Assembly (NCBI GenBank): GCA_963676515.1
Contig: OY781061.1
Coordinates: 744,001 to 808,000 of the forward strand
Direction of reading: 5' to 3'
Origin: G963667145 sp963676515 [NCBI: Candidatus Cloacimonadota bacterium]
GTDB lineage: Bacteria > Cloacimonadota > Cloacimonadia > G963667145
DNA length: 64,000 bases
The notes under the pieces were generated by a model. That model was not told the origin of the DNA, did not search any database, and worked only from the letters and a program-made list of their open reading frames with translations. This document shows positions 1 to 28,220 of the stretch, piece after piece. Each line of letters starts with the position of its first letter. Position 1 is the first letter of the stretch. The position numbers and the translations under genes are program-made.

Positions 1-1620
1 CAATGCGATACTGCCAGCTGTCAAATCACCTGCTATCGCTCCTATTTTGGAGTTGCCACCGACTACTGCTTTGAAGCTCACCAATGTCAAATCAGTGTTT
101 GGCACTGCAAAGGCGTTGTTGTCCAGCTCTCCGCAGAGTCCGCCCATAGTCACGCTGTTATCTGCAAAGTCACCATCGGTGAAGTCAATCTTCGCTTTTA
201 TGTGTGCCTTGCTGAGTCCTATCATTTTACTAGAGCCTGCCAGAGCTCCCACTACTAGAGTGTCAGCTTTATTTAGACTCGTGCCAAATATTACGCCTGA
301 GCTAACCACCACGCTGTCGTACATACTGCCTTTGCTAGCCTCTAGCCCTGTGACACCGCCGACATACGCTTTGCTGGCTTCAGCTGTAAAGCTCACATCT
401 GTCACATTGATACCATGGAACGAGGTCTTGGTAATATAGCCCACTGCTCCACCTAAGTATGCTTTTCCATTTGGTGTTGCGTATGCTTGTAGATAGCTCC
501 CGCTACCGTCTAGGAATACTCCTTTTCCATCTTCCCCGATGCTGCTAGAGGAGATGTCTTCCACCTTACCAGCTATCATACCTGCATACGAGTCACCACT
601 GGTGGAGGTGGCTGTTATGTTCCCAGCTAGGGTTACGGTGACCTCTTTTATAGAGCCGATAATGTTATTGAATTTACCTACTAATCCACCTGCACATGCC
701 TCTCCGCTGGCTGTAGCCTCTACTCCCATGACGGTAGCTAGGGTTACCTCGTCTATCTGCTCAGCTCGGGAGTAACCGATGAAGTAGCCCGCTGCACTCG
801 TAGAAGAGCCACTTGTTCCTGCTGTTACCTTATTGGTGATAGTATTCACTGTGGAGCTCAGATATTCACTGCCTGCGATTGGTTCGTATCCGACCATACC
901 ACCAGCGTAGCAATTACCGCTTCCTTGTGCTTGTATCGACTCTACTGTCTTCACTGTGGAGTTGGTGATAGTTCCACCAAAAGCTCCGACCATGCCGCCA
1001 GCAGCTGAGATAGTTCCTGTTCCACCTGTTGTCTTTATGTTCTCAGCCTGTGGGATGCCACAGTTCTTGATGCTACTTTGCGTGCCTCCCAGCTGTCCTG
1101 CCAGACCGCCAGCATACTCGCCTGCACTCAGGTCGCCAGAGATGGTGATGGTGTCTGCTGTGGCTACTACAGAGCCAGTGCCACCGCCTATCATCCCGCC
1201 TACTGCTGTCTTTGCCGTGAAGTTCTTCTCTATGGTAATGTCTACGCTGTCTATGTATGATGTCCCTGTCAGCTTTCCGACCAAGCCTCCGACATAGTCA
1301 CTGCTACCATCGCCGACTGCTTCTCCATAATGGAGCTGCAAGCTTTTAATATTGGCGTTCTTTATCACACCAAAGACTCCGACATTTGCCTCGTCTTGGT
1401 TGATAGCGTTGACAGTCATCTTATGCCCTTGTCCATCGAATGTCCCTTGGAAAGGATATGCATCATTGCCCAGTGGCAGTAGTGTGTCCCCATCGCTAGC
1501 GAAGACAAGGTCTTGTGCTAAGAGCACTGAGATTTCTCCTGTGATGTCGCCATCGTTGTATTGCTCGGCTAAGTCGTTGAACTCTAGGCAAGTATGCACT
1601 ACATAGTCGTCGCCATCCAT
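1..1620 (-). other. GLUG-like glycine-rich repeat region of the giant lipoprotein
   Basis: Residues 8453-8992 of the giant protein differ from the Fn3 array. The segment starts with a collar resembling M26/ZmpA-type GLUG proteins (ALAQDLVFASDGDT, then FQGTFDGQGHKMTV, then VGVFGVIKNANI). It then shows at least eight copies of a core such as YVGGLVGKL, AVGGMIGGG, YAGGLAGQL, AAGGMVGAF, YAGGMVGYE, CAGGLVGKF and YVGGVTGLE at 40-70 residue spacing, separated by Ser/Thr-rich beta-prone sequence. This is expected to fold as a beta-solenoid. It continues past the left edge, so whether a C-terminal anchor follows cannot be seen. Confidence 0.75.
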
Positions 1621-4600
1621 CCCGTAGGTAAAGCTCATGTAATTACTCCAAGCACTCGGTGTGCTTCCAGTGAGCTTGGCTACTCGGTAATAGTAGGTGT
1701 ATCCCATCTTCAGTTCGCCCAGTGGGCTGTTTTTCGACTCTGTGTTGTCCACTGGCAGGTTGTAGTCGATAAACATAGTGTCTCCTACCAAAATATCACT
1801 AGTTGCCAAAGTGTCTTGGCATGTAGCAAGATTATTCGCGACCACATCGTTGCCAGCAGCATCACTGATAAACGCTTGAGCTGTGTCACGACCTATTATG
1901 TATTCTTCAGGAGACACTGCAGGTTCTGTCCAGACTACTTTCAAGCCTTTTCTTGTCCCATTTATTTCATAGTTTGCGACTTTTAGCAGTGCCATAGCTT
2001 CTGTCTTGAGGAAAGATTCGGAGCTGTCCTTATCGTTCAATATCTCAGATTCGAAGAGGTGCGTTCCGTTGGTTATCACGGCCTGTATCGCATAGGCATA
2101 GGTTGTCCCTTCTGCTGGTACTTCCCAACCCCAGTCAGCCGAGTTCGCATTATCTTGTAGGACATAGACATTGTCGCCTGTCGTGGCATCAACTTGCTTT
2201 GAGAAATCACTAGCAGTAAACTTCTTCGGGCTACCATTGGAGATGTCATCATCTTTATCGTATCTGGTGATAAGATAGTAGCTTACCGTGTCTGGTGTGA
2301 TGTCTGAGGTAGTATAGTCATCAGCAGGTCTGCTAGGTATGAACTTATCGAAAGTCAACTCTATCCTGTCGGCATAGTTGCCCGGAGTTCCACTGTAGTT
2401 TATGTTTGTGGTTAGAGAGTCTTTGTCCCAGTCATAGTAGTAGCTCATCTTCATCGTGTCCGACTGGATAGTCATGGCATCGCCTATGCGACTCTGGATC
2501 TGACCTTTCAAGATATAGCTGTAAGCTGTGCCGACCTCTAATTCGCCGAACAATTCGCCATCATCCGTGATAGAGCACATACTGTCTGTAGTTGTTTCTG
2601 ATTCTATTGCTTCTCTTTTGATATTACTCGTGATATCTTGCTGTGTATAAGACGCTTTTGTGCTTGTTTTCCTCCACAGCTCATACTCCTCTGGTTTTCC
2701 ACCTACGGAGAAGTTGGCAGAACCATCTGTCCAAGATATCTTGATGCCTTTATTTACGAAACTGACAGTCAAGATGTCGATATAACTCTGGCAATAGCCA
2801 TGCACAGCCGTGGTTAGATCGAATCCAACTTTGGTGGTAATCGTGAAATCTTCCCCATCTACTTTTACCACTTTGGTAACCTCGATGCCGTAGTAATATA
2901 TCTTGCCTTCACCTGCTGTTGCATCTTCCCAGCTGACTCTGCCGTCTGTGATTTTGGTTAACAAGTCGCTTGGCGCAAGGGTCGCTAGGGCGGTTGTAAT
3001 AGCACCAGGGATAGTGTCTTGTTTCCTGTAGATGGTGTATTCGTCTGCCTCTGGGATGGTATCGAAGAACAACCAGATACTCGCACTGTCTGTGCTAGCT
3101 TCCATATTCAGCTCGCCCAGTGGCGGGTAGACGGCATCGCTTATCTCTGAGTATATAGATGTCGCTTTGTCGTTATCATACACCACTTGCACTTTGTAAT
3201 AATAAACACTCCCCGCTGGTGTTAGGTCAGATGATATTTCTACCATTTTCGCAGTTGGAGACTCTTGTTCTCCTACACTCTTGAAGCTATCTGCTGCTGT
3301 AGAGTTGCTAGCCTGATAGACAATATACTTGTCCACCTCATCGGTGGTGTAGCCTGTAGGCAAGCTATCCCAAGCTACACAAATCTTCTCGACCCCTACG
3401 GTCGGGTCGTATGCAGCACTTACGCCTTCCACAGATTTGCTTCTTACTGCAGCTGTTATCTCATCGCAGTATTCAGAGTAGTTCTTGCTGCCAGTGCCAT
3501 CCGTCATATAGGTTTTAGCCTTTATGTAATATTTGCGGATTTTCTTACCGCTTGCATACTCGTCTGGTGACCAGAAGTGAGTAGTATCGTTCTTGCTCTC
3601 TATCTCCACTGAGTCCATATGCCCTGCGATAATACCTGACACTGTGTCAAAGTAGAGATAGTAGCCAGCTCCATCTGGTTCTACATTCCAGCGGAAATTG
3701 ATGCCCGCAGTGTCCTCTTCCCCAGCTACATAGTCGTACTGGCTATTTTGCACAAACTCCAGATTTTTCGGAGGACTCAACCTGCTCACTCCAGTTTTGC
3801 TGTTACTTTCTCTTTTGCAATTTTGCAAATAAACAATAGCTTTGTACTGATAGTTCTCACCCGCTTGCAAAGATGGGTCTGCATCAAAGAATTTCTTTTC
3901 CTCTCTGTTTATCGCACTGTTAAGATTCCCAACTTTTCCCCAAGAACCACTACTGGTTTTTCTTTGCAATACGATAGAGTCCACATATTGGCAACTGGTG
4001 TAAGTAATTAGGATGCTGTCTTCGTAGGTCTCGTCTGAGGCGGATACCAGATAAACACTGTCTGGGAATGTATAGCCGACGATGGTATCGCCTGTTGGAG
4101 AGGAGATAGTAGTCTCAAAGTTTGCTCCGCTACCTGCTGTAGTGTCTTCGTCGATATCGTAGTATGCTTGGATAGTGTAGCGGTATATCTGTCCTTTCTC
4201 CGTGCCACCAAATTTAGAAGCATCCACTGAATCGATATAGATGCTGTCCTTTCCATCTACTTGTACTTCATCCCCTATCGTGCTTTCCTCTATATATCTG
4301 GTGATAAGGTAGTACGAGACCGAGTCGTGCATTACATCATCTATCCTATCCCAAGAGAGCTTGATGCTGTCTTCGTACCATATTGGAGTTCCGCCGTCGT
4401 CATATTCTAAACCTTTAGATACTTGTTTGTTTTCCACTTCGGGCATCTCCAGATATCCAAAAGCTGTGTTACTCGCATCGCTTGCCACATTTTGGACATT
4501 CACCACGCATCTGTAGAAATAAAGGTTGCCTATTTTTAGCTCATCTCCTAGTTCACTATCGATGAAGTAGTACTCTCCATCATTATCTCCGTTGTAGATG

Positions 4601-7600
4601 CCAAATTCTTGCTTATATTTTGACCTTATGCTGTCCACTCTGCCTATGGAGTCGAACTTGTAGATGTCTATATCTCCAGCAGATACGGTAGTAGGCATAC
4701 TAAAGATGAATTTCATCGTATCTATCCTTGCTCCTGCGAAGGCTAAATCTTTTACCCCTTCAAACTTGCGAGTACCGTAACCTTCCTCAGACCACGCAGA
4801 AACCGTGTCGTATCCCACTGTTTGTAAGCAATAGTATATCTTTTGCTCTGGCGAATAATCATTGTCATCTGTGTAGGTGGTATCTGAGCTGTTATCGGTG
4901 ACGGATGTATTTTCGGTGAGGAGACTATAATTGTCAGGAATCTCTCCTGTCGTGTTTTGCGTGGTGTCCGCGTAAATCCTATATCCTCCAAAGGCGTCCG
5001 CATTTCTGTTCCATTTGAGCTCGATTTTATCGATATACTTACTCACACTGATGGAGTCCCATGCAGGCGTTTCCATCTTAGCGAAGGCTTTTTGGTTGTC
5101 CGCAATAGTAAATGGAGAAGCTCCTAGCTCGTTTTTGTAAGCTATCTCGTAAGTGTAAAAGAGACCTTGCTGAACATTATGAGTGTCGCTTATAATGTAA
5201 GGCTCTGTATCCTCTGGTTTTTCTATTGTTATAGTATCGCTTTGAGCAGAGGTTGCGGCATACTTATAAACTATTATGGAATCGACATTTTGTTCTATAT
5301 TAGAAGAGTAAGCTTGGATGATTATTTTGTCTGTAAATTTCCCATTGCTTGTTATCTTCACACTGTCGGGGCGTTTTAGGGTGCTCCAGCCAGTGTCTGC
5401 TTCAGTCGTTTTTGTAAACGATCCCTTTGTGACTTTTATCTTGTAATTGTACTTACTGCCATAATCTATAATTGTATCTGCGAATCTTCCGATTTCGATG
5501 TTTTTGCCCACTTCCAATTTTTGGTAAACGGTATTTCCCCAAGAGGTCTCGCTCTCTTTTTTGCGATAGAGCTCTACTTGGTCCACATAGCTCGGTGAGC
5601 TGTATTCTATCACGATGGAGTCTTCGTATTCGCCTTGGCTGATGCTTACGAAAGATGCCTCTGCTGGTGCGGAGTAGCCCAAAACTTCGGCTGAAGCCTC
5701 TCCAACCAAGCTGTGGACAAAAAGCTCCTCTACCTCAGTCCCTGGCACTGTGTCTTGGCTTATCTCTTTGCCTGCTATTATGTAGTAGAGGTAGTCTCTT
5801 CCTTTGGCTGTACTACCAAATGGCGATTCATCTGTGTAATCCACGAACCTTTTGATGCCACCACTTACTTCTGCTTGAGCGGTAATAGTACTAGTTACGG
5901 CTCTACGATAGATAGTGTAGTAGTCTACTGTGTCGTTTTTGGCATGAGGGATGCTGTCCCAAGTGATAACTATGCTGTCACCTACACCTTTGGTCGCTGC
6001 CACATTCTTGACTATCGGCATTTCCAAAAAGCCAATTCCCAGATTTGATGCGGGGCTCAAGTTGCCATCCACTTTCACTCTCACCCTGTAGAAATACAGC
6101 TGTCCTATCAGCAAATCAGAGAAGCTGTTATTGTATTCATATTGGTCATACTCATTTTTTGTTACTGCTGTTACCTTAGTATTCCACTCGTCAAAAGGAA
6201 TTCTATATTTTTGCAAAGTTTCTAAGTTCTCCACATAGTCTACACTTGTCAGTCGAGACATGAAAATAGAATCATAGACAAGAGTATCGGGGATGCTCCA
6301 TGTCATACTCATGGTGTCCACTTTCCCTTTTTGGTTTGCCCAGTCATAGACTGTTAGGTCTTCCACTCCAGCATACATCAGGTAGCCATAATCCTTGTCC
6401 GACTCTCCAGATTTCTTGTCTGCTCCTCTGGCTACTACTTTGTAATAGATACTCTTGCCTGCTGGATAATCAGTCTCATCATTGTAGAAAGTGTCTGTCT
6501 CCGAAGTTGTTAGTGGTGTAGAACCAGTCTCATGCACTGTGTCGTAGATGCCATAGCCTACTCCACCTGATTGGTCTCGTAGCAAATAGTATCCTTGTGT
6601 TGCTCCTGGGATGCTAGACCAAGTAATCTTGATCGTGTCTTTGGATTCGCCTTTGTAAACGGACAAAATCTCTGGTGCGGATATATCCTTGCCAATAGTG
6701 TCCTTAGCATCGCCAAATGGAGAGTAGCCTGTTTCATCGTTATAGAGAGCAGCTTGATAGATGTACTCTTCTCCCTGCATACCAGAGCTGTCCACACAAT
6801 AGACTATGCCAGAGCCACCATCATATATAAGAGTGTCCACCGCTTCTGTAGGATCGTGCTTACTCTTCAGGAGCATCACCGAGTCCACGCTCGCATTTGT
6901 TGCAGTTGTAGGCAAAGTGACCTTAATCTTCACATAATTTTCCGTAACTTCCACCTCTTCTACAGCTGTAGCAGCTCTTAGGTTCGTATATGCCAAGGCA
7001 TCTGTGTAATTCTCAGAGATGTGGTCATTGCCCAAGAAGAAGCGATAATGTAAGATTTGACCCGCTTTTAGCACTGTGTCGTAGAGAGGAGAGGATTTTC
7101 CTCCTTCCAAAGAGTCTATTTTGGTAAAATTAGAATTAGAACCGTTTACTCTACGATAAGCTATGGCATATTTTTGGTATGGCTCGCTTGTCATATTAAG
7201 GTCTATCTGTATCGTAGTGTCTGTGCCACCATCTAGCGGTGGATAGTCGAAACAGATCTCTGAAGTGTCCCCTTTTGTCACAGTTACCAGCAATGAGTCC
7301 AGAGCACGCATCTCCGACCAGCCACTAGCTATATTGCTCTTGGCAGATTTTATCACTATGTCACTCATATCCACGCCTTCCAGCACTGTGTCTTCTTGTA
7401 TGTTCACCTTCGCCTGAATATAATATTGGTAATCCCTACCTTGCTCAAAATCTTCAGGGAAGATATGGTCGACATAATCTCGGAAAGTTGAGTCGTTTCC
7501 ACCTAGCTCTATCTCTTCTATCAGTGTTCCATTGTCATCACACCTTGCCAAAATATACGCATTTACTGTGTCGTTCTGCAATTTGCTTGTGGGCAGCTTT

Positions 7601-19600: not shown

Positions 19601-22600
19601 TGTAAATACTGCAAATTGTAATAGTCAGCGTTGGTATATGGTTGCCAGTCTATGCGGATAGAGTCCAAATAGTCGCCTTTGCTCACATATTTTATTTCCA
19701 CGCCATCGAAGAGAGCAAACCCAGAGTCTGTGCATATCGTAGATTCTGTAGATGATGTGCCAAAGTCGGCGTCATAGAACCTCACTCCGAAGTAAATATA
19801 CTTTCCTTGCTCACTTTCATCTTCTATCTCTACAGAGTATTGCGTGCCTTGCAGCGATATCAGCTGATTGTCCCACAGTGTAGCGAGTGTGTCGCTTTTA
19901 TAAATCTGGGTAGTATAGTTTTTGGGGTTTTCCCATTGCAAGTAGATCGAGTCTGTGGCAAGTCCATCGCTAGCACTGAACCCCAAAGGAGTCGGCAGAG
20001 CCAGCCAGCCTGTAGCAGAGTCTGCACTCATTAACGAGGAGTGAGCCACCGTCATATCGCCACTGGCAGCCATCATCGCTCTCACTTGATAGGAGTATTT
20101 GTGCTTTTCTTCTAGCTTCGCTGTCACAGCGTTTTGAGTCAAGATGATAGTATCGCCAGAGATAGTCATATCCCCCGGAGATAATATCTGCGTAGAGTCC
20201 ACTATGCCTGTGGTCTCATCCTTCTGATAGACTCGGTAAGAGACCAAATCGTCGTGCTGATATGCATCGGACTTCTTCCACTTGACTACAATCTTCTTCT
20301 CATAGTCGCCTGTGCTAGCAGAGACCATATCGGGAGTGGAAATGCGAGCATATCCTATAGCTGTGCCCGAGAGTGCCGAGTAATTGCCAGCACTAGAACG
20401 AAAGTTTACGCTCCCGTTTACATTCACTGCGAAGATATAACGGCGTCCTCTTTTGATGCCAAACCACTCATTTCCTGTTGTATATTTCGCCCCAACCTCT
20501 ACGGTAAACTCAGGAGCTGTCGGTGGTAAATCTGTGTAGTTTGCATCATTATTCCCTGTAATTCTCTTGCCCTCTTCAGGTTTGTCTTTAGTTAAATCAA
20601 AATCGTTAGAATTTAGAATGCTGTCGGTATAAACATTATAGCTTATATCTGTTAAAGAAGCACTCTGCATGCCATCCCAAGAGACGACTATCTTGTCCTC
20701 GTACTCTCCATTTGTAGCTTCTATATTCTCTGGTGGCAAAAGCGGAGTCGTGATTGTCATAGTATCGCTATAGTCAGACATCCCTGTGATGTCTTTGTAA
20801 AATCTCACGCTGTAAGCATAAGTTGTCATCATCATCAAGAATTTATTGTCCTCGAAGAAGCCTGGTACTCCTTGCCCTTCGTTAGGCCTCACGGCTACAC
20901 TATATCTCTCATTTTGGCTTTCAGCCACTTCACGATAAAAGAAGATCGAATCCACCCAATCGTTCGGACAGGAGTAGCTGACTTTCACATATGAGCCGAT
21001 AGTCAGTAAAGACGATATCACATCATCTACCTCTGGAGTAGGCATCTTGGTGTATAGCGGCAACCACTCCGACCACGCAGAGTAACCGTATGTAGCTCTC
21101 TTTGAGCGTATGCGGACAGAATTATACTTAAATCTATCTGCCTCTTCTACAAAGATGGAGGTGTCTTTCGTCGTGCCGGGTATATCCTCGATGGTGTTTG
21201 CCACGGCTTCGCCTATCTTGTAGTCTATCTCATAGGTGATACTGTTCGGACTCAGCTCGCAGGGGTCTTCCCATGTCATACGGATGGAGTCTTCTATCAG
21301 AGCATACTCTCCGTCTTGGGCGGTGTATTTCACGAACTCTGGAGCGGGTATCTCTGCCCAACCAGAGTCTAGCATGCTCATCTCGGACTCTTGGGCTCCT
21401 ACTTTGGCTATCAAGCCGTAATAGAACATCTCGCCTATCTTCCTGTCGTCTAGGGCGTCCGTATAGCTCAGAGTCTTTTGGCTGTAGCCATCCCAGTCGC
21501 TTGGCTCTATATTACCGATGTAGTTCATCAGCTCTACGCTGTCACTCTCGCCTCTGTACACCAGATATTTAGTAGCTCCGTAGCTCGGGTTCGAGAGATT
21601 TTGAGGTGCATTCCACGAGACGATGATGGTGTCTTGCACATCGCCCTTGGTAGCTTCCACTCCATCGGGTGCCAAAAGCTGTGCTATACCGATGCACTCG
21701 TCCGACCAGTCAGATTTTTCGTTCTCGCAATTTTCGTTGAGTGCTCTCACTTGGTAAACATACTTATGCCCTGTGAAAATGCCCACGACATCTTCCAAGC
21801 TCGTTGTTGTTACCGTTTGGTATGTCGTGTCTTCTTTGCCTGAGAAGTCGAAAGCTCGTTTCACTTCAAAACTTTTGGCAGCACTCGGTGTTGTCCATTC
21901 CAGATAGATAGCCATTATAGAGTCTTTCGTTATCTTAGTTACATACGGTGCAGGTGTCTTTGCCCATCCGTAATAAGGCTTACCTTCCTCTTGTTGCGAG
22001 AGTGGCGACCACACACCGTTTGGTGTCGTCTGCGTCCTGATCCGATAATAATATTTTGTTCCGGGGTGAAATTTACCAGCAGTGGCATTCACGGCGTTGT
22101 GCAGATAGAAGTAATGTGACTTACTGTTATCTTCCACTTCTAGAGTGTCATACACATTTGTACCGTCGTTGTAGTCAGCGGCAGTTTGGTAAACGAATAT
22201 CTGGAATCTGAGCTCATCGCCTGTAGGCAATGATGGCCACGCAAGCCTAACATCCGAGAGATAAGTTCCCTTACTGACGGTGTCGAAGGTGATGGATGGT
22301 ATGTCTATGTAGGTGTCAACCGTAACAAATTCAGAGTTTTGCTCTATCCCTGTCGAGCCGACTCTGTTGGCTTGTGCTCTGTATTCGTAGGTCTTGCCCA
22401 CTTTTAGATTCGCGTGTGTATAGTTCCCCTCTGTAGATGAGAGTGTTGCTAGTGGTTGGTATGTAGCGGCTACCTTCACCTCCAGAACTGTGCTGTCGGA
22501 GTTTTGGGATGGATCCCAGCTAAGATTGATAGAGCTACTGCTCGAGATAGGCGTAGCTGCGAAGTTGGCTACTGGATACAGCTTGGTATAGCCAGTGACG

Positions 22601-25600
22601 ACCTCGCTCTTGCAGCTAGCTCCAAACTCTGCACTGACTCCCTTCACGAAGAACTCTATATCCGCTCCGACCTCTTTTGCGGTGACGGTGTATTTGTACT
22701 CTTGCGTTATATCCGAGAGTTCACCTCGCACCATTGCATCTTCTATGCCGTCATCATCGTTGCCCTCTTTCCACACTTGGTACTCTGTTACATCGTCCAC
22801 TACGATCAGAGTGTCCCAAGTAATCACGATGCTGTCTATCAGCCCTCTGCTCGCTTCCACATTCACTGGTCCTGCTATAGCTAGCCAGCCTACATCATAG
22901 AGAGCTTCCCATCCTTCCGAAATCTGTGTGCCTTTTTGCACAGCGATACGATACTCATACTTTTGTCCATCAAGCAAGGTTTCTTTTTTCTCATCCACAA
23001 ACCTATTTGTCTCTATAGAAAAGCTAGTGGTGTCAGCAGAGCTGGTAGCTCCCACTCTAGATCTCTCTACGAAATAGCTCTCTGCCACAGCGACAGAGTC
23101 CCATGTCACCACGATGCTATCTCTATATTTACCGTCCGTTGCCTTTATGTTGCTCACATTGGGCATCTTGGTGTAACCTGTAGCTAAGTTCCTTTTGTAT
23201 TCGGTGCTGAGGTCGCTATAACCCGTCTGACCGATGTCTCCCAAGAACCCTCTAATCTTATAGGTGTAAGAGAACCCCTTGGCTACATTGCCATCATCGA
23301 GATAGACCGTATCTCCTGTAGTGGAAAATCTCAGCTCGCTTGTATCTTTGGTAAAAATAGCAGAATCGCCAGACTCTATGTATCTGCATATTTGGTACTT
23401 TTCGGCTTTAGTCACCGCATCCCATTGGACTACGATTTTGTCGGCATACTCTGCTTTGCTCGCTTCCACATGCTCTGGTGGTGTCGGCATCGCATAGCCA
23501 AACACGCTATCGCACGATACTTTTACATTTGGATAATCTTCCGTGGCGACAGCTAGCCTGTAGTAGTAATAGTGGTTAGCTTTTGCTGTCGCGTCTGTCC
23601 ACTGGCTTACATCTTGCAGTCCACTAAACATCGTTACCCAAGCAACCGAGTCTTCTTCTCGCCTAAGACCAATGCAATTAACTCTGTCTCCCTTGTTCGT
23701 CCATGTCAGGAGTACACTGTCCTTCAGTGCTGTCTCTTGCGGACCTGTCGCCAAGAAGTTCCTTACTGCTGTCAACTGACTATAGCCAGTAGTAGTGTCC
23801 GAATATTCAGACCAAGCAGCACTCAAATTTTCTTCTGGGTAAACTGAGTCTATCTCTCTTTCAGCTGTTTTGTTTATCACCCGCACTCTATAAATGTACT
23901 TTCGCCCTTCTAGGACATTGTCTACATCTGTGTAATCTCCGTTGTTACTCACATCCAAGGTGACTTCTTCATTGCCTGTATTGGTCCTGAGCATCTGGTA
24001 AGTCAAAACATCGTCGCCAGCTTCTATCGTGTTCCACTTTATTACTATCTTGTTGTCTTCGCCTTTGCTCGCTCCATCGCTAAAGGTCAATATTGGCAAC
24101 TCCGTGAAGCCCGGCTTGAACTCCGTCAAGACTGACTCTCTACCCTCATTAGGTTTGTAGGTGCTCAAGGCGAAATAAACCACTTGCCCAGTATCTGCAT
24201 CTATGCTGCTATCTGCTGTCGCACCTTCGTAAACTGGCACGCTATAGCACATATAGCCATCACCTCTGTCATCTGCATCGGCATCAGCGATATAACCAAG
24301 CAGTTTTTTTTGCCCATGCTTTGCTGTTTTGTAATAAATCCCATAATTCACTGCGGCAGCTTTGCTAAAATACAAGTTGATCGTGTCGTCTTCGGTGGCT
24401 AAACTTGCCCTATCGAAATCTGGTGGCTGCAGCGAAACCCAGCCAGTATCAATATTAGAGGTGACCTCAGCATGCTTTTTGGTAGCGTAATCTGCTCTAT
24501 GAGAAACTATTTTATAGAGATACTCCTTTTCGCAGTCCAGCGTAGAGCTTTCATCGTAATAAGTATATTCTGTACTTCCATCATTGTCTTTGTTCTCTAT
24601 GACTTCGTAATCATCAGCACCACCTACGACTTTTCTACATACCTGATACTTTGTCGCTCCGCTATTTTTCAAAGTCTTCCACTGAAGCATTATCTTGTCG
24701 GCGTATTCATCCTTCCCTGCGGTCAAGCTATACGCAGCATCGAGCTTCATATAGCCTTCTACTATATTACTCAGGTCTGACTCTCCCCAGCCCTCTTTGC
24801 TCGTAGTGACCGCAAACTGGTAAATCTTGCCATAAGTCAGTTTGCCCTCTTCGGGGTAGAGAGTCACTGTAGAGTCGCCCACTGCCACACTTGTACCTTC
24901 TTCCCAGCCGTCATTGCTATCGTAATCTTTGTAATAAACTCTGTAGCTTTCGTTAGATTTGGACTCCCAGTATAAGATAATTTTGCTATCTAGGTTGTGA
25001 GAAACAGAGTCCAGCACAGGGATAGTAAGGGCTGTCATCGCACTACTGCTTAGCTCTACTTTCCCCGATGTCTCGTAATCTCCAGTGCTCAAAAGGATGC
25101 TACTTTCTGTCTCTATTTGATACATATATTCCGTAGCTGTCGCCAAGCCAGTATCTTTGTAAGTCACCGTCTCGCCTGAAACTTTCTCTATAAAGGCGTA
25201 GGCGTCTGTGGTATTTTTTAGTTTGCGATACAAGTTGTAATTTTGTGCATATTTCACAGGATCCCACTCCAGATCTACCCAGTCAGTATTAACACCCACT
25301 GATTTAAATCCATCCGGAGCAGCTATCTTGATCCAGCCAGAATCTATGTCAGAATCTTCACTCGACTCTACATCGTTCTTACTACGGATCTTGTAAATAT
25401 ATTTCACGCCTCTATCTATGCTGTATTCGTCTTGTGTTAAGGTCATATTTGTTAGCAAGGTGTCCGCTGTTATAGACGGCAATCTAGCCCAGTCTCCAGC
25501 CATGCCTTGCTTGTATATCACTATATAAGACTTAGCGTTTTCTACTTTATTCCATCGTACCACCACCACACTATCTCCGCCTTTGGTAGCAGACATGCTA

Positions 25601-26976
25601 AATGGAGGCTCGATCGCAGCGTATCCCACTTTTTCGGTAGAATAATCGGACTCTCCTATCACCTTGCCACCGTCGCTTTCGTACACTGTAGCCGAGTAAT
25701 AATATTTTTTACCTGGCTCGACATTACTTATCACACCGTCTTCCAGCGTAATTATCCCCATACCGCCAGAGGAAGCAACCGCACCAAGCACATCCGTCAG
25801 CTTGACGACCGTTTCAGAGTTCAACTCTCGTCTATAAAGTTGCACCACCAGATCTTGCCCTTCTTCTGGAGCTACAGTTTGGACCTTTATTCGGATAAAC
25901 CCAATAGAATCTTGTGTCGTCGTCAAGATAGTAGGCGTAGGATATTTAGTGTAACCTAAGTTAAAATAATAACCTTCTGGATTTTTATCGTTCTCTCCAC
26001 TGTTAGCTCCCGTCTCCTTGCCATCTTTCACACAAGTCACTTTGAAGCGGTAGTTTACACCTATTTCAGAATCCATCCATTCGTAAGCTCTATTCTCAAA
26101 TTCGTCACTACCATCTATTACTTCTGTTACAGGTGTATAGCTCGTTTCGCTCTCTTTTTTCACATAGATTATATAACCCTCTATGCCATAGACTTCATCC
26201 CATGTAATGCGGATCTTGTCACTATAGTCTCCCTTACTGGCATATACATTCTCTGGCGACTCTACACTCGTCCATCCAGAGTCCAGTGCCGTCATCTCCG
26301 AAGATTTCTCGCCCTCATCCACGATCACTATCTGTGTCTTGAAATAGTAAATCATCCCTTTGAGAATGTCGTCTTCCAGCTCCATGCCTTCACTGTTCTT
26401 GAGCTCAGACAAAGATATCGACACCTCATTCTCTGTCACATTTTTGCTATCCGTGGAGTAATATATCATCGCATTGCCCAGCAAACTTTGCTCTGCAGCT
26501 ACTTTGATCCTATCGGGGACATTCCAAGAGATACCGATCTTCTTTGGAAAGATACCCTTGGTAACTTCGACATTATTTAGAGTAGGAATCTCCAGCCATC
26601 CTATAGCTGGAGTGGAACGAGGCAGAGATTTGGTCGTTCCTCGCACAGAACGCACCTTATAATAATACGCTTTACCCGGAGCCAACTGCAAATCGCTATC
26701 CACATAGCGAGTAGCCTGCACTTGCCCTATGGAATAATAATCCTCGGCAAAGTTGCTGGAGTTTATCGACGCCCTGTATATCTCGTAATCGGAGACACCC
26801 GTTACCGAGTTCCACTCGATGACGATCTGTTCCTCGTATACACCCTGTGTCGCTGCAGCAACTGGGCTAGAAATTGTTGCTTCCATTTCTGTGGTACATC
26901 CCACGAAAAGGGATACAAACAACAATAAAGCTAGTAGAACTTTTTTTATTTTTTTCTGCCTACTATAAGCTTCCAT
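1..26976 (-). CDS. Giant lipoprotein with ~80 fibronectin-III-like modules and a GLUG-type region (3' end outside window)
   Basis: The frame opens at ATG 26976, seven bases after an AAGGAG ribosome site, and has no stop down to base 1, giving at least 8,992 residues. Residues 1-26 form a lysine-rich, hydrophobic signal peptide ending FVG before Cys27, a relaxed lipobox, so the mature protein should be lipid-anchored. From about residue 32 to 8450 it is a tandem array of Fn3-like modules. Typical features are a lead xxPxxVxASKG, a strand DSIxITWD, then YxIYR, a late YxYxVxA and a DxGW linker. From about residue 8453 the sequence changes to repeated VGGLVG/AGGMVG motifs preceded by FxGTFDGQGHKM, like GLUG regions of surface adhesins. 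All short open frames on either strand here are shadows. A surface adhesin or scaffold role is inferred. The array and architecture are clear; the function is not. The gene ends beyond the window. Confidence 0.93.
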   Translation of the reverse strand, partial: MEAYSRQKKIKKVLLALLLFVSLFVGCTTEMEATISSPVAAATQGVYEEQIVIEWNSVTGVSDYEIYRASINSSNFAEDYYSIGQVQATRYVDSDLQLAPGKAYYYKVRSVRGTTKSLPRSTPAIGWLEIPTLNNVEVTKGIFPKKIGISWNVPDRIKVAAEQSLLGNAMIYYSTDSKNVTENEVSISLSELKNSEGMELEDDILKGMIYYFKTQIVIVDEGEKSSEMTALDSGWTSVESPENVYASKGDYSDKIRITWDEVYGIEGYIIYVKKESETSYTPVTEVIDGSDEFENRAYEWMDSEIGVNYRFKVTCVKDGKETGANSGENDKNPEGYYFNLGYTKYPTPTILTTTQDSIGFIRIKVQTVAPEEGQDLVVQLYRRELNSETVVKLTDVLGAVASSGGMGIITLEDGVISNVEPGKKYYYSATVYESDGGKVIGESDYSTEKVGYAAIEPPFSMSATKGGDSVVVVRWNKVENAKSYIVIYKQGMAGDWARLPSITADTLLTNMTLTQDEYSIDRGVKYIYKIRSKNDVESSEDSDIDSGWIKIAAPDGFKSVGVNTDWVDLEWDPVKYAQNYNLYRKLKNTTDAYAFIEKVSGETVTYKDTGLATATEYMYQIETESSILLSTGDYETSGKVELSSSAMTALTIPVLDSVSHNLDSKIILYWESKSNESYRVYYKDYDSNDGWEEGTSVAVGDSTVTLYPEEGKLTYGKIYQFAVTTSKEGWGESDLSNIVEGYMKLDAAYSLTAGKDEYADKIMLQWKTLKNSGATKYQVCRKVVGGADDYEVIENKDNDGSTEYTYYDESSTLDCEKEYLYKIVSHRADYATKKHAEVTSNIDTGWVSLQPPDFDRASLATEDDTINLYFSKAAAVNYGIYYKTAKHGQKKLLGYIADADADDRGDGYMCYSVPVYEGATADSSIDADTGQVVYFALSTYKPNEGRESVLTEFKPGFTELPILTFSDGASKGEDNKIVIKWNTIEAGDDVLTYQMLRTNTGNEEVTLDVSNNGDYTDVDNVLEGRKYIYRVRVINKTAEREIDSVYPEENLSAAWSEYSDTTTGYSQLTAVRNFLATGPQETALKDSVLLTWTNKGDRVNCIGLRREEDSVAWVTMFSGLQDVSQWTDATAKANHYYYYRLAVATEDYPNVKVSCDSVFGYAMPTPPEHVEASKAEYADKIVVQWDAVTKAEKYQICRYIESGDSAIFTKDTSELRFSTTGDTVYLDDGNVAKGFSYTYKIRGFLGDIGQTGYSDLSTEYKRNLATGYTKMPNVSNIKATDGKYRDSIVVTWDSVAVAESYFVERSRVGATSSADTTSFSIETNRFVDEKKETLLDGQKYEYRIAVQKGTQISEGWEALYDVGWLAIAGPVNVEASRGLIDSIVITWDTLIVVDDVTEYQVWKEGNDDDGIEDAMVRGELSDITQEYKYTVTAKEVGADIEFFVKGVSAEFGASCKSEVVTGYTKLYPVANFAATPISSSSSINLSWDPSQNSDSTVLEVKVAATYQPLATLSSTEGNYTHANLKVGKTYEYRAQANRVGSTGIEQNSEFVTVDTYIDIPSITFDTVSKGTYLSDVRLAWPSLPTGDELRFQIFVYQTAADYNDGTNVYDTLEVEDNSKSHYFYLHNAVNATAGKFHPGTKYYYRIRTQTTPNGVWSPLSQQEEGKPYYGWAKTPAPYVTKITKDSIMAIYLEWTTPSAAKSFEVKRAFDFSGKEDTTYQTVTTTSLEDVVGIFTGHKYVYQVRALNENCENEKSDWSDECIGIAQLLAPDGVEATKGDVQDTIIVSWNAPQNLSNPSYGATKYLVYRGESDSVELMNYIGNIEPSDWDGYSQKTLSYTDALDDRKIGEMFYYGLIAKVGAQESEMSMLDSGWAEIPAPEFVKYTAQDGEYALIEDSIRMTWEDPCELSPNSITYEIDYKIGEAVANTIEDIPGTTKDTSIFVEEADRFKYNSVRIRSKRATYGYSAWSEWLPLYTKMPTPEVDDVISSLLTIGSYVKVSYSCPNDWVDSIFFYREVAESQNERYSVAVRPNEGQGVPGFFEDNKFLMMMTTYAYSVRFYKDITGMSDYSDTMTITTPLLPPENIEATNGEYEDKIVVSWDGMQSASLTDISYNVYTDSILNSNDFDLTKDKPEEGKRITGNNDANYTDLPPTAPEFTVEVGAKYTTGNEWFGIKRGRRYIFAVNVNGSVNFRSSAGNYSALSGTAIGYARISTPDMVSASTGDYEKKIVVKWKKSDAYQHDDLVSYRVYQKDETTGIVDSTQILSPGDMTISGDTIILTQNAVTAKLEEKHKYSYQVRAMMAASGDMTVAHSSLMSADSATGWLALPTPLGFSASDGLATDSIYLQWENPKNYTTQIYKSDTLATLWDNQLISLQGTQYSVEIEDESEQGKYIYFGVRFYDADFGTSSTESTICTDSGFALFDGVEIKYVSKGDYLDSIRIDWQPYTNADYYNLQYLQKDAVAGSWSTTRADIGDSYTLKNIIESNRGEIFYFRLRANNSVVQLQPSDGYGEQDSGYTQLDKVGGFNATKGDLEDTIRLNWSLVPNADYYEVWRTDDTTSQWAQINTTSELLYKDPIDDLIYGKIYYYKALAVNDLTVTFGEEQKNYSDIDSGYISVPVPQNVEATDGEYHDKVVISWDNLTKVEGYIIDTAQSNNLLDYGVMDTIRPASTDDRHVYEESIEGGKLEVGVRYYFRVRAFTEAKEGDKETANSDPGYIALTTPMDVRASQGTSTDTITLTFKAFDNLTGMDNYEIVRRAREDRDTFDVDYDETRFSVDASSADSITIKVQDYNSLNSSDGYIYDYRVRSKKATIYSDWSGWSDYGWITLKPLEITVDNEQDGLMTDSIKISWDTNAQQFSRVNKLDIYYDTVSEPADDWTSLLSLEKQYSQLASGYLMINTRDNQNFAPATMYYFKAKSCYFDEAIQISSAFSALDSGWYKLRTPEVEFSSIGENSDTITLRWSKQELPHGRNEEVEYIISRDYTPEYKILSDTGCFCDTTNVEEGVCFTYTITARHPRYLSSAPTEKIVAYARLLPPYLIGATPYGEDSITLEWQYEQDYIKNIDSFYIYRKTAYDDPERDPVYTMAVDVNKYNYTWSDEDCLLGTDYYYYMRAYKDGMTISDTSAVKMASLELLTPSLSYTDKGVDTGQITIKWYGTKDAKEYVILRSENTEFDPSVIVDTVDGSPTQYLDDNNGVGLEDGTVYYYKVQAKRDQHLSSASSYRGGYTKLKKPKIVTISKNTPEIAMEWSREGGNEDSKARIFVGEGNEVVNPLDSISLKDSTTDDLIGRFSSSDWFVEGKEYYTKLKTYITKTTVMTAGGGTEVFEICSDFSLAKKFYSSIAQPDLKLYNGKLDTLRVEWNRMDNDVVSDVVVQWTADGFGSSADIMETSFVNNGADSSGILERSESEEQRLLPGKKYYFRIRFQRSEVLSDWSDIVEGWLKLPAPINFTATKGKYADSIRFTWDNYLEDTDTALDQTSRYVIYYDNGSESVQLANGAVTNKDDFYDITLSMEGTLTRGIMTQFQIRGETPSGSELPFQTEELSQDSGHTRLMLPASSANLTKDEDNQIVLSWTTELTDDGDVLKAYQDLDVRYQIQRRESANAFTESILKSIDSLEWEEYTDSKDLTPSKVYYYRMRFYSQEYYNDYNNMDKSSSPWYDIPDSGTIKVNPPEIEQLRDGDFYTDKVNLNIRRSTGADSVLLYREDNNQGNSHIIDTIIFDDNVTAYKGWLTYVDTKDILSGSMYKYYGVAYAKERYSKNGDPLTSYTKLQTPAWLTASDGKFSEMIVAEWDTVARADGYFIWISEDATGDLVDSAEVPSQDSTVNLVSASISNVEIGKKYRFAIAAWNSRCYYDGQRVYSDVSSDIGYLKFYSPEHVTLSQDSVGFVKLQIGYDDPGFELEVYRSADTATVNNTENDWGSYNKISPSDKKYDAAKTEYVCKDILSSTEGKDGVQYAYMVQVYQSGMKDAISDTFKTWLENESGEKKGWNQAGLYDNEIVATQGTYQDSIVVVWEKSGDESFVDGIKYMWVEYDLQTSDVAQDSGTTDDTCLVRYAQSKESSQKVKNGNKYIYKLKKIFYDESSQAYTTSEVSDESATGWAKMEKPEIRLTTTTAGDFKIAETSNKDAFEVWASINGADVTQLATVTAGGSYVDSVLYSKYNIGKKVEYTIKTINAYTELTSEYSDAVDTFYMLYSPRYAAASQSEYSDRIEVKWQWGTARAALVDSFIVTRYNITEGMQETRYAFEGDDDSKLTHSYGTDKSAGTDTCIFADTEGIKQGTEYLYSIKSMRVNPSGTRLSTDSITATGYAKFAAPTNVDATEDQRYVEISWDSIRNQAEVEDFRLYFSTTEAGAYGSLTLTGSNVTTQDTFVVDEEIPQGTIRWYKVAAYNYLSDEGERSAAVMGYALMEPIGGVSCSKGASADTITVTWDTLPVYKSYYIEWSTSKASDQTTGKFTTRLGQKGSFANSSYTEDTVYIPIAADSLRGRQIYVHLWAQNQYGGSEVQLDSGYTKLKPPTGFTASKGTELDSIRFSYTPRAGNHAKGYRLYADTKESKLGNGSAEIYLEDYENEDTLKAIANGEEGYYYYASIQALSDLTNANSDFVVDSGYSRIPAVQTFLLTAESSGDILLKWDPVDIGGDSVSYNIHRSENDDEFSMLEQGYYTAPVSGKIAYLDEECLPGEQYTYYLVSKAWERPTEEEGQVILSDTSAHRSVSAKIGLVKGFVQDSAVFANNSISLQWEQRGDIDTYYIYRSSFADTTNAVDTQISVEGNSYYYTDKDDSVQDKSGMLWHYWIRAYKDGNRGEWTPATATSPGGLLAYTKPEAPTIASVSQGTSADTIRVEWNKIAYATEYWLEYKVKDTENWDKIENITDTFKTLRRTTQGLQDGVRYQVRVSAVIQKDSDSPNGQTNGLYGREMVSDASDTETGFVRFQKITGFLFQSFADSIRIDTIKLYWEQLAVSEVIYTIYRNEKDNATTAVEIATLEDKNVFFDVRESDDKDPVGGKPYYYWITAKKVAYDNSVSDKQALQVIYEASTQEESYAWCLLAEPENVWASGKMMASGADNKFAVTYTDSIVILWDSVPYAEAYKVQYRENDESSWSDLKTEVADTQYVWDITSDAQKGFLYDFQVSANNSLCGKDKPVYSETFNGFAKLSAPRQVKAEHIDNESGIYLSWDTIVGTEKYVISKSDDGTTYNELGKIPHTVGVTPVDTTDKTPEPGDKRWYFVRAYNTATGLSDTSTIVDTICPILPPDNLTASKGEEDAVTLTWTLNERTVGVDGFYVYRIDIGTAGGNNFATTDTVGKVTKSEFKQSDGEITFKDELGWDAGKGADTTRSGQKYLYAIRTFKDGKYSDFTPDSEIDTGWIALPQLTGLEVPIIEANKNFTLSWDKNNLINKDICYVYKRIKYKEGAFDTLYIYEDNGAVISDTIATDGAKLENGMAYQYFVKAFNSSSINFNGEDAKVWAESEHDYHQGMISSEWSEHDFTGRKFAKPTISVEKGKDNLKVDTIYITWDEDDNATRYLFDVDTVSSFDSPLYRDRGKDNTNRTLDSFYYTATGGIDKAQVYYFRMKVENQEYGNAEWDSLTSDWSPVDSGWSKLIPPEDVTASKDRTDSIKVSWTAWDWSEAVEYKVKYVDATGTPGAETVTGDSLIYKSNFSQGENTINVSSYHSKFGTSAASDTVRGIGKQPAPTYESGSTPTQGNYQDSICFIIDESSAGIAEQTINYKVYVSADKESDEISSDSPDVGEPYEFSTNEITLKLDNGIYPAQYGQKLYIRVSWSIGEGATIYSEKSITDSGWTKLVAPTTLQKMPLESPQDTTATGIKWVNSTNSESTIIYRRYSGTTESFSPIDTVYADESSYIDTLPKADRNKTYEYKVKANNSLSKTLSDYSAALQTFVPKIYTISDFVASKGTEVDTISFSWTGNLDSTYKIIVDTNLEINSTDPVAVISELKNGVANWKVSDNSCQSGRWYYFKLFLVGDENKAGEYGYPQYAAEIDSGYADYSDVEPDWVAVENDTADIELDIKGKNVGDSAYSKFDVSQAVSRDWIEKVYLTKDNEITSVYDIKDTLFQNESVYTEKMISNFGQIYEYKLEFVNQIRPGKFLTFKTFTTLRMPTKIEWKSSSLAEDKIKVNITKVVGNKDTDIDSIVVYRYSPSLGTYDTIIIDYTSGLNPNTLVDTTSLTQGVFYEYTAAYYNGKTGLSRVSTSKDTAYAKLEAPQFVSISKELNKDTIFLVWNKIDDAVNGYDLYCDTSVAGNFATKTLLETKTDGYDTSYNDINNYTQCSNVYYRVVAKGLDTTSVFADCKIGHGSRAFRGVDDLVGVDIPRVDTMQFTFTLPSGVYLDESEIAPFKKGVKLMRYDKVDSIESLSDSFIVDANSMSVTTVGSKYTISDKSNLQYDNLYFYRVILKVQNSDGYTDLSNVAKGWMKPAAVTEVVATSGTKVDTVLITWEKLPTSKLQNDTVNAYILARCDDNGTLIEEIELGGNDSTFRDYVDHIFPEDFEQGRDYQYYIQAKVNIQEDTVLEGVDMSDIVIKSAKSNIASGWSEMRALDSLLVTVTKGDTSEICFDYPPLDGGTDTTIQIDLNMTSEPYQKYAIAYRRVNGSNSNFTKIDSLEGGKSSPLYDTVLKAGQILHYRFFLGNDHISENYTDALAYTNLRAATAVEEVEVTENYVKIKVTLPTTATNASVDSVMLLKSKHDPTEAVDTLIYDGGSGIVYCVDSSGMQGEEYIYQAALYNDETGYSPFGDAKDTIGKDISAPEILSVYKGESKDTIKITWSSIPGATQGYYLLRDQSGGVGYGIYDTVHETGSTPLTTSETDTFYNDETDYPAGKSIYYKVVARGADKKSGESDKDYGYLMYAGVEDLTVYDWANQKGKVDTMSMTWSIPDTLVYDSIFMSRLTSVDYVENLETLQKYRIPFDEWNTKVTAVTKNEYDQYEYNNSFSDLLIGQLYFYRVRVKVDGNLSPASNLGIGFLEMPIVKNVAATKGVGDSIVITWDSIPHAKNDTVDYYTIYRRAVTSTITAQAEVSGGIKRFVDYTDESPFGSTAKGRDYLYYIIAGKEISQDTVPGTEVEELFVHSLVGEASAEVLGYSAPAEASFVSISQGEYEDSIVIEYSSPSYVDQVELYRKKESETSWGNTVYQKLEVGKNIEIGRFADTIIDYGSKYNYKIKVTKGSFTKTTEADTGWSTLKRPDSVKITSNGKFTDKIIIQAYSSNIEQNVDSIIVYKYAATSAQSDTITIEKPEDTEPYIISDTHNVQQGLFYTYEIAYKNELGASPFTIADNQKAFAKMETPAWDSISVSKYIDKIELKWNRNADAFGGYRIYADTTQNTTGEIPDNYSLLTENTSVTDNSSDTTYTDDNDYSPEQKIYYCLQTVGYDTVSAWSEEGYGTRKFEGVKDLAFAGARIDTMKFIFSMPTTVSAGDIDIYKFDSIGRVDSIRSKYKQEFGIYNGDNDGEYYFIDSELGDELKIGNLYFYRCVVNVQNVASDASNTAFGYLEMPEVENKQVSKGLEYDDGGTPIWYEDSIKLSWDRIDDVMHDSVSYYLITRYIEESTIGDEVQVDGKDSIYIDSVDASKFGGTEKGQIYRYTIQAYYDIDEDTTAGSGANFETTISSPTGDTIVGYTFPDSVYLVSASDETYEDSILITYTSCQYVDSIVLQRKTSSGSWGKVGNLNSAINREEKKFFDADPSLQAGENYQYKAIVYLQNCKRESNSKTGVSRLSPPKNLEFVQNSQYDYVAGEEDTAGINFRWNVEPDGAGYYLYFDTVSGIIAGHMDSVEIESKNDTTHFWSPDEYASGKKIRKYYIKAKTYMTDGTGSKNYSEYCDEITAAVRSKSVEGVSAAYDPTVGVEKICVAWDSLPTGYTTDEVDKYIVYQASNSTAADSFKSVGEQESPTAKMVEISSDLTPAGSVYYYKVQVVYDNDKATSIYSEISDAVYPPLGELNMEASTDSASIWLFFDTIPEADEYTIYRKQDTIPGAITTALATLAPSDLLTKITDGRVSWEDATAGEGKIYYYGIEVTKVVKVDGEDFTITTKVGFDLTTAVHGYCQSYIDILTVSFVNKGIKISWTDGSANFSVGGKPEEYELWRKTSTKASYTQQDITSNIKREAIESETTTDSMCSITDDGELFGELEVGTAYSYILKGQIQSRIGDAMTIQSDTMKMSYYYDWDKDSLTTNINYSGTPGNYADRIELTFDKFIPSRPADDYTTSDITPDTVSYYLITRYDKDDDISNGSPKKFTASDFSKQVDATTGDNVYVLQDNANSADWGWEVPAEGTTYAYAIQAVITNGTHLFESEILNDKDSSESFLKTEAMALLKVANYEINGTRKGLKVVWTEPAVSPEEYIIGRDTAQAFISDAAGNDVVANNLATCQDTLATSDILVGDTMFIDYNLPVDNTESKNSPLGELKMGYTYYYRVAKLTGSTPSAWSNYMSFTYGMDGDDYVVHTCLEFNDLAEQYNDGDITGEISVLLAQDLVFASDGDTLLPLGNDAYPFQGTFDGQGHKMTVNAINQDEANVGVFGVIKNANIKSLQLHYGEAVGDGSSDYVGGLVGKLTGTSYIDSVDITIEKNFTAKTAVGGMIGGGTGSVVATADTITISGDLSAGEYAGGLAGQLGGTQSSIKNCGIPQAENIKTTGGTGTISAAGGMVGAFGGTITNSTVKTVESIQAQGSGNCYAGGMVGYEPIAGSEYLSSTVNTITNKVTAGTSGSSTSAAGYFIGYSRAEQIDEVTLATVMGVEATASGEACAGGLVGKFNNIIGSIKEVTVTLAGNITATSTSGDSYAGMIAGKVEDISSSSIGEDGKGVFLDGSGSYLQAYATPNGKAYLGGAVGYITKTSFHGINVTDVSFTAEASKAYVGGVTGLEASKGSMYDSVVVSSGVIFGTSLNKADTLVVGALAGSSKMIGLSKAHIKAKIDFTDGDFADNSVTMGGLCGELDNNAFAVPNTDLTLVSFKAVVGGNSKIGAIAGDLTAGSIAL
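1640..26880 (-). repeat. Tandem array of fibronectin-III-like protein modules
   Basis: I located the conserved tryptophan of the second strand (I/V-x-I/V-x-W) of successive modules between 26814 and 20275. The 21 intervals average about 311 bp, roughly 104 residues, ranging from about 280 to 400 bp. The same spacing continues leftwards to the last module near 1640-1990, which extrapolates to about 80 modules. Copies share a protein pattern but are strongly diverged in DNA; I saw no near-identical neighbours, so the array looks old and not recently expanded. Most modules end in a G-W or G-Y linker followed by a short hydrophobic-Pro segment. The exact count needs a profile search. Confidence 0.85.
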
Positions 26977-27182
26977 ACAGTGTCTCCTTCTTTATAAAAT
27001 CGTGCAAGTTAAACGCATTTTTAAACATTTTTGGCATTTTTGGTAAATTTCCTATCTCTTTATAAAATAATATAGTTATCACTACTACTCCGACCTCTTT
27101 CACTCATTTTAGGGGTACAAAACACGCCCATACTATCCAAGCTGGTCTTCCGTGTAGTTTTTGTCAAATATTTTTTAATCTT

Positions 27183-27669: not shown

Positions 27670-27703
27670 CCAAAGGCGGGCTAGTGATGGCGGTTCTCTC
27701 TCG

Positions 27704-28215: not shown

Positions 28216-28220
28216 AATGG

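What the first reader, a model, noticed from the sequence alone, without database searches (positions are those of the whole stretch)
1..26976. Single reading frame of at least 8,992 codons: a ~1-MDa Fn3 lipoprotein
The minus-strand frame from ATG 26976 has no stop over 26,976 bases. The lipobox, ~80 Fn3-like modules and absence of any gene on the other strand are seen directly. A lipid-anchored array of this length would be hundreds of nanometres long if extended, far beyond usual Fn3 surface proteins. An adhesion, aggregation or polysaccharide-binding role is inferred from the fold.
Basis: partly seen in the sequence, partly recalled or inferred. Interest (0 to 1): 0.78.

Follow-up and report, generated by a model that had tools for sequence, protein, structure and literature searches.

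The report
Megadalton fibronectin-type lipoprotein of uncultured bacterium
One uninterrupted bacterial gene encodes a probably lipid-anchored chain of 79 fibronectin-like beads followed by a second, glycine-rich repeat region, most likely a roughly 0.3-micrometre arm that holds a sticky tip away from the cell; giant adhesive arms are known in bacteria, but one built this way was not met in the papers searched here.

Summary
The minus-strand frame from ATG 26976 is open for 8,992 codons to the window edge (at least 998 kDa), with a Shine-Dalgarno-like sequence, a lipobox-like signal peptide (Cys27) and the best coding score in 44 of 44 stretches. Residues 42-8449 hold 79 tandem ~106-residue modules. 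They are Fn3 by Pfam, PDB profiles and an AlphaFold model; the last 24 modules, which Pfam misses, match Fn3 structures independently. No exact DNA repeat exceeds 16 bases, so an assembly artefact is unlikely. Modules 59-73 look like a five-module block present three times. The host is probably a deep Cloacimonadota lineage. No comparable array was found in 124 Cloacimonadota, 285 Omnitrophota and 198 Elusimicrobiota genomes; the frames read there hold up to 7 modules. Best explanation: a surface lipoprotein whose Fn3 modules form a ~0.26-0.37 µm extender for a distal head, working like SiiE or the Marinomonas ice adhesin. Lipidation, surface location, function and C-terminus are not shown.

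The parts
1..26976 (-). Giant ORF, 8,992 codons in the window, C-terminus outside it
26984..26990 (-). Shine-Dalgarno-like GAAGGAG, 7 bases before the ATG
   Evidence: read from sequence
26896..26976 (-). Lipoprotein-type signal peptide, residues 1-26, with L-F-V-G-Cys27 lipobox
   Evidence: read by eye from the translation; lipobox rule recalled, no predictor run
1630..26856 (-). 79 tandem Fn3 modules (boundaries residues 41-8449)
3733..8598 (-). Modules 59-73: probable five-module block present three times (59-63, 64-68, 69-73)
   Evidence: offset-5 and offset-10 module similarity reached by 0 of 5,000 order permutations; 8 of the 10 offset-5 pairs inside modules 59-73 stand out, 63-68 and 64-69 do not; closest pairs
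1..1629 (-). Region after the Fn3 array (residues 8450-8992) with 14 spaced GG-x-x-G type motifs about every 34 residues from residue 8532; GLUG-like, possibly a beta-solenoid, open to the window edge
   Evidence: single-sequence model is all-beta but poor
28191..28240 (-). Two terminator-like hairpins between the upstream EamA gene and the giant gene
   Evidence: 5 terminator-like sites found in 26900-28400, 1.4 expected; no sigma-70-like promoter found on this strand
38588..39364 (-). lgt, prolipoprotein diacylglyceryl transferase: the enzyme needed for lipid anchoring, same contig
   Evidence: Pfam LGT 4.5e-75

Best explanation
It is a giant cell-surface lipoprotein that works as an adhesive arm. 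Shown: one intact reading frame; a lipobox-type signal peptide (by eye); 79 Fn3 modules in one unbroken series; a different, GLUG-like repeat region after them. Inferred: the N-terminus is lipidated at Cys27 and held in the outer membrane; the chain is exported to the outside, since an extended array of ~0.26-0.37 µm would not fit across a periplasm; the Fn3 modules act as a semi-rigid extender and the GLUG-like region, with whatever follows, is the distal head that binds a surface, polysaccharide or another cell. The array grew by duplication, at least once of a five-module block.
For: Frame intact and coding throughout. Signal peptide and Cys27, lgt on the same contig, and a second short lipoprotein-like ORF beside lgt with a similar F-x-G-C lipobox. 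Fn3 by sequence and by predicted fold: a three-module model, mean pLDDT 80, pTM 0.76, matches multi-domain fibronectin fragments at E down to 1e-11 and query TM-score up to 0.60, though with rmsd 5-7 A for the better ones, so the angles between modules are only roughly alike. GLUG-like region: matches at E <= 0.001 in 10 of 124 Cloacimonadota genomes, best 1.7e-14; three matched proteins were scanned, all carry Pfam Glug and two a type IX sorting domain. Analogues with the same layout: SiiE, 53 Ig-like domains, 175 nm; MpAFP, ~120 repeats of 104 residues, ~0.6 µm proposed.
Against: The C-terminus is not seen, so the head could be something else. No ligand-binding domain was recognised in the window's part. 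No Pfam Glug match in the window's own region at E <= 10, with HMMER's filters on, and the model of that region is too poor to prove a solenoid (mean pLDDT 43). Of the GLUG-bearing frames read elsewhere none carries an Fn3 array, at most one module. A machinery that puts lipoproteins on the surface was not searched for and none shows among the window genes that were named. No orthologue among 124, 285 and 198 genomes, so conservation, the usual sign of function, could not be tested.
Confidence: 0.55

Rival explanations
1. A giant surface enzyme: the Fn3 array is a spacer and the unseen C-terminus holds a hydrolase or peptidase acting on polymers or on other cells.
For: GLUG proteins of Cloacimonadota also match the M26 peptidase N-terminal region (one of three just above its cut-off, two below); bacterial Fn3 often accompanies hydrolases (recalled); a giant Omnitrophota protein was proposed to degrade target-cell polysaccharide (passages).
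Against: No catalytic family above its cut-off in the six pieces of the 8,992 residues (pieces were cut at fixed places) nor any match in the C-terminal piece.
Confidence: 0.2
2. An envelope scaffold or tether that stays in the periplasm, folded back or lying along the cell, lipid-anchored at one end and binding the cell wall or a matrix at the other.
For: Many lipoproteins of diderms face the periplasm (recalled); no surface-export signal was proven; the residues after Cys27 (TTEME) are not a tested surface signal.
Against: An extended array is roughly ten times deeper than a periplasm (array length scaled; periplasm depth recalled); two related GLUG proteins carry a sorting domain for export out of the cell.
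Confidence: 0.15
3. Kin or self-recognition and cell aggregation: the modules themselves are the binding surface, each weakly adhesive, so that avidity grows with length, rather than a spacer with one head.
For: For SiiE longer fragments bound more (passage); modules are diverse (24-36% identity for the best pairs aligned over 75 residues or more), which suits many binding faces.
Against: Conserved positions in the module consensus (W, Y, G..Y.Y) look like the usual Fn3 core (recalled); no conserved surface motif was seen, but none was sought systematically.
Confidence: 0.08
4. Artefact: chimeric assembly or a decayed pseudogene.
For: The genome itself is not held, so neither reads nor an independent assembly could be inspected.
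Against: No stop in 8,992 codons, coding frame preferred in 44 of 44 stretches, no exact direct repeat above 16 bases, no tandem DNA repeats.
Confidence: 0.02

Closest known systems
MpAFP ice-binding RTX adhesin of Marinomonas primoryensis
   Same: Megadalton size (1.5 MDa), ~104-residue beta-sandwich modules in long tandem, acidic, proposed extender with distal binding region (abstract and passages)
   Different: Its RII repeats are identical Ig-like Ca-binding domains and RTX proteins leave by type I secretion; here the modules are divergent Fn3 domains behind a lipoprotein-type signal peptide, with no RTX part seen
SiiE giant adhesin of Salmonella
   Same: Dozens of tandem beta-sandwich domains forming a linear arm of 175 nm (passages)
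   Different: 53 Ig-like domains, type I secretion with C-terminal signal (passages); no lipid anchor (recalled)
Giant ORFs of Omnitrophota
   Same: Single genes above 20 kb in an uncultured phylum, some with adhesion domains (passages)
   Different: Those have few annotated domains and many have transmembrane helices; 285 Omnitrophota genomes gave weak Fn3 matches in 6, frames read there hold up to 5 modules
GLUG-motif proteins of Cloacimonadota
   Same: Related to the region after residue ~8510
   Different: They sit in open frames of 170-1,944 residues, some cut by contig ends; in the frames read they hold at most one Fn3 module; two of three scanned have type IX tails
Short Fn3 arrays of Cloacimonadota
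   Same: Same kind of module, in tandem; up to 7 in the frames read, and single modules in 124 of 124 genomes
   Different: Open frames of roughly 700-1,200 residues, not 8,992
Giant1-5 proteins of Apilactobacillus kunkeei
   Same: 3,000-8,000 residue extracellular surface proteins, Giant1-4 with a predicted beta-solenoid (abstract)
   Different: The solenoid is N-terminal; no Fn3 lipoprotein array is named in the abstract

Membership tests
Fibronectin type III (PF00041) | Significant match to the fn3 profile | tested here: met
   Four of six pieces above the Pfam cut-off (49.5-72.6 bits against 25), five single stretches passing on their own; the last two pieces had no match
Fibronectin type III (PF00041) | Fn3 beta-sandwich fold | tested here: met
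   Model of modules 12-14; 262 Foldseek matches at E <= 0.001, best are fibronectin fragments; last 24 modules match titin, RPTP-delta and neogenin by profile, E down to 3.3e-9
Bacterial lipoprotein | Signal peptide ending in lipobox with Cys | tested here: met
   By eye against a recalled rule, no predictor run: R6, K8, K9, K11, K12, hydrophobic stretch, L-F-V-G-C27; F at -3 is unusual for E. coli (recalled)
Bacterial lipoprotein | Lipidation and anchoring of the protein | not testable with these tools
   lgt is encoded on the contig; lipidation itself needs an experiment
GLUG-motif (PF07581) protein | Match to the Glug profile | tested here: not met
   No match at E <= 10, filters on, in residues 8440-8992
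GLUG-motif (PF07581) protein | Homology to proteins that carry Glug, repeated GG-x-x-G motif | tested here: met
   E 1.7e-14 and 2.1e-13 in genomes G070 and G066; three matched proteins carry Glug; 15 matches of a pattern written after seeing the region, none in residues 1-8440, mean 0.9 and at most 4 in 200 shuffles
RTX adhesin (MpAFP, SiiE-like) | C-terminal RTX repeats or type I secretion signal | not testable with these tools
   C-terminus lies outside the window and no genome is held
RTX adhesin (MpAFP, SiiE-like) | No cleavable N-terminal signal peptide (recalled) | tested here: not met
   N-terminus is a lipoprotein-type signal peptide, by eye; so it is not filed as an RTX adhesin
Type IX secretion substrate | C-terminal sorting domain | not testable with these tools
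   C-terminus not seen; two related GLUG proteins have one
Cloacimonadota (host) | Phylogenetic position of core proteins inside the phylum | tested here: inconclusive
   PNPase, 24 Cloacimonadota genomes of 124 and 7 others: inside, next to G067, support 98/98; ClpB, 9 Cloacimonadota genomes: beside seven of them, 89/94, not starred. Fibrobacterota, Spirochaetota and other neighbours were not in the trees

The most novel reading that the evidence does not exclude
A new architecture of megadalton adhesin in a deep, uncultured bacterial lineage: an outer-membrane lipoprotein that carries an Fn3 'titin-like' arm of a third of a micrometre out to a GLUG solenoid head, with neither RTX secretion nor a pilus, which would require a route for moving a lipoprotein of about a megadalton across the outer membrane.
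Probability: 0.35. Interest if true: 0.72.

Novelty: new variant of a known kind. Interest (0 to 1): 0.52.

Why it matters
Giant bacterial surface proteins are reported from several uncultured phyla, and for many of them few domains can be recognised (passages). This one has a readable plan: anchor, 79-module arm, start of a second repeat region, and visible traces of how the array grew. It gives a test case for how a diderm bacterium moves and anchors a lipoprotein of about a megadalton, and whether Fn3, like Ig-like domains, serves as an extender in bacteria. Short arrays of the same module in the same phylum offer a starting point for its evolution.

Tried and rejected
Assembly artefact and pseudogene: rejected on open frame, coding score and lack of long exact repeats. 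A hidden second gene on the plus strand: two ORFs of 150 codons or more, no Pfam match. Orthologue hunts: the genome-contig scan with the N-terminal 1,500 residues found none; viral-contig scans with N- and C-terminal pieces found none; 124 Cloacimonadota, 285 Omnitrophota and 198 Elusimicrobiota genomes gave only weak matches in 15, 6 and 0 genomes. The empty Elusimicrobiota answer proves little, as the tool itself warns, and the last two phyla were samples of larger groups. G122 looked like a relative whose gene was cut by a contig end; reading it showed a trypsin-like protease (by eye) with two Fn3 modules before the contig ends, not an orthologue.

Other arrays: the longest Fn3-bearing frames listed (G032, 3,598 residues, 3,190 of them fetched; G029, 2,125; G386, 2,038) hold 1, 3 and 3 modules. 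A later count over 203 frames above 150 residues in fetched loci found up to 7 modules, in frames or parts of 693-964 residues. The list was cut by the tool, so a longer array may have been missed.

Structure of the C-terminal region: the single-sequence model was too poor to use (mean pLDDT 43) and no fold search was run on it. An alignment of overlapping three-module stretches (A1) went out of register and was dropped; A3 with 24 non-overlapping triples replaced it. The profile A2 holds 74 of 79 modules; module 54 and modules 76-79 were left out. RibBA was not used to place the host: its best relatives are a Mycoplasmatota bacterium and Firmicutes at 60-67%, Cloacimonadota reaching 58%, at odds with PNPase. 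No promoter-like site was found on the gene's strand.

Papers: searches showed no giant bacterial Fn3 lipoprotein among the listed titles and abstract beginnings; lists were cut at 6-15 papers each and the library lacks most subscription papers and preprints, so this is weak evidence of novelty. Seen of papers: PMC11573180, passages and one section; PMC10066038, PMC4083281 and PMC6272769, passages; PMC12863079, abstract and outline; all others, search listing only.

Full report
What is there. The minus-strand frame starting at ATG 26976 has no stop in 8,992 codons and leaves the window at base 1. It starts 7 bases after GAAGGAG. From the base composition, such an open frame has a chance probability near 10^-242; the other five frames of the same DNA hold 199 to 680 stops. 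Codon usage learned from 14 other genes of the window favours this frame in 44 of 44 stretches of 200 codons. No tandem repeat was found in the DNA and the longest exact direct repeat in the gene is 16 bases, so the usual cause of false giant genes, mis-assembled repeats, is unlikely. Residues 26-8992 weigh 998 kDa, pI 4.5.

Modules. An HMM iterated on the protein finds 79 tandem modules between residues 42 and 8449, 78 with i-E below 0.01, median spacing 104, range 92-140. Because such an HMM can train on noise, a second one was built from modules 1-40 only: it gives 37 hits at i-E below 0.01 in the untouched second half, against 4 hits summed over 20 shuffles. The module HMM hits none of 29 other window proteins and not the C-terminal region. 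Pfam fn3 passes its cut-off in the first four pieces of 1,500 residues, mostly by summing weak modules (five single stretches pass alone), and is absent from the last two. For those, a profile of modules 56-79 matches titin, RPTP-delta and neogenin Fn3 domains in the PDB (best E 3.3e-9) and aligns to modules 1-30 with 98% probability. A profile of 74 modules matches titin (E 1.3e-34) and fibronectin (7.2e-16). AlphaFold on modules 12-14, with 24 module triples as alignment, gave mean pLDDT 80; Foldseek's best PDB matches are multi-domain fibronectin fragments, query TM-score up to 0.60, with rmsd of 5-7 A for the better ones, so the single-domain fold is clear and the geometry between modules approximate.

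Growth of the array. Module similarity is far higher at offsets 5 and 10 than in 5,000 random orders (0 reach it). This comes mainly from modules 59-73, where 8 of 10 offset-5 pairs stand out: a block of five modules probably present three times. A few weaker offset-5 pairs lie elsewhere (13-18, 21-26, 28-33, 46-51, 72-77). Identities between the closest modules there are about 25-36%, so the duplications are old.

The far end. After residue 8449 the module HMM finds nothing more. From residue 8532 to 8992 a GG-x-x-G type motif occurs 15 times, in 14 spaced units about 34 residues apart, and not once in residues 1-8440; the pattern was written after seeing the region, but shuffles of it give 0.9 matches on average and at most 4. 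The region matches proteins in 10 of 124 Cloacimonadota genomes, best E 1.7e-14; three of these were scanned (one cut by its contig end), all carry Pfam Glug and two a type IX sorting tail. The window's own copy does not match Pfam Glug and its single-sequence model is all-beta but poor, so 'beta-solenoid' is an inference. The frame is still open at the window edge.

Host and neighbours. No genome is held for the window. PNPase puts the window inside a tree of 24 Cloacimonadota genomes and 7 others, next to genome G067 with 98/98 support; identity to the rows of the tree is at most 61%. ClpB puts it beside the phylum's members with weaker support. Several neighbouring phyla could not be included. 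The genes next to it are ordinary: EamA transporter, riboflavin operon, restriction-modification pair, lgt, clpB, pnp, pyrimidine genes, prfB. Terminator-like hairpins lie between the EamA gene and the giant gene, but no promoter-like site was found on its strand; it is probably its own transcription unit.

Is it found elsewhere. The N-terminal 1,500 residues gave weak matches in 15 of 124 Cloacimonadota, 6 of 285 Omnitrophota and 0 of 198 Elusimicrobiota genomes. Single Fn3 modules of this type are in 124 of 124 Cloacimonadota genomes. Short arrays exist there: among 203 frames in the loci fetched, six hold 7 modules, in frames or parts of 693-964 residues. The longest Fn3-bearing frames listed (3,598, 2,125 and 2,038 residues) hold 1, 3 and 3 modules in the parts fetched. 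The printed list was cut, so a longer array may have been missed, and draft genomes break such genes. GLUG-bearing frames in these loci hold at most one Fn3 module, so the joining of the two parts was not seen elsewhere.

Mechanism. Scaling from SiiE (53 domains, 175 nm) gives 3.3 nm a module, and from MpAFP (four repeats, ~190 A) about 4.7 nm: 79 modules would span about 260-375 nm if extended. With a probable lipid anchor at one end and a different domain type at the other, the likeliest working is an extender arm that presents a binding head. Shown: frame, signal peptide motif (by eye), Fn3 fold, change of domain type. Inferred: lipidation, surface exposure, stiffness, head function.

Noticed in passing
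32823-32948 (-): FMN riboswitch (RF00050, 110 bits) in front of ribD, ribE (lumazine-binding), ribBA and ribH genes; RibBA is closest to a Mycoplasmatota bacterium and Firmicutes (67-60%), while PNPase is closest to Cloacimonadota: the operon may have been acquired.
   Followed up: partly
35813-37802 (+): ApaLI-like restriction enzyme with its methyltransferase; the window holds 2 GTGCAC sites where about 7 are expected (that ApaLI cuts GTGCAC is recalled).
   Followed up: partly
63277-63352 (-): prfB seems to need a +1 frameshift: a short frame from ATG 63352 ends in GGGAGG TTG GTT TGA C, where the main frame takes over, the usual RF2 autoregulation pattern (recalled).
   Followed up: no
38006-38578 (-): Small lipoprotein-like ORF next to lgt with lipobox F-F-C-G-C and no Pfam match at E <= 0.001; it shares the F at -3 with the giant protein.
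   Followed up: no
L138, L168 (Cloacimonadota loci): GLUG-motif proteins of Cloacimonadota carry Por_Secre_tail type IX sorting domains (two of three scanned).
   Followed up: partly
L103, L104, L114, L160, L163, L164: Cloacimonadota frames of about 700-1,200 residues with 7 tandem Fn3 modules in the parts fetched: possible small relatives of the giant array.
   Followed up: no
40560-41567 (-) and 50217-51059 (-): Two ORFs of 335 and 280 codons without any Pfam match at E <= 0.001.
   Followed up: no
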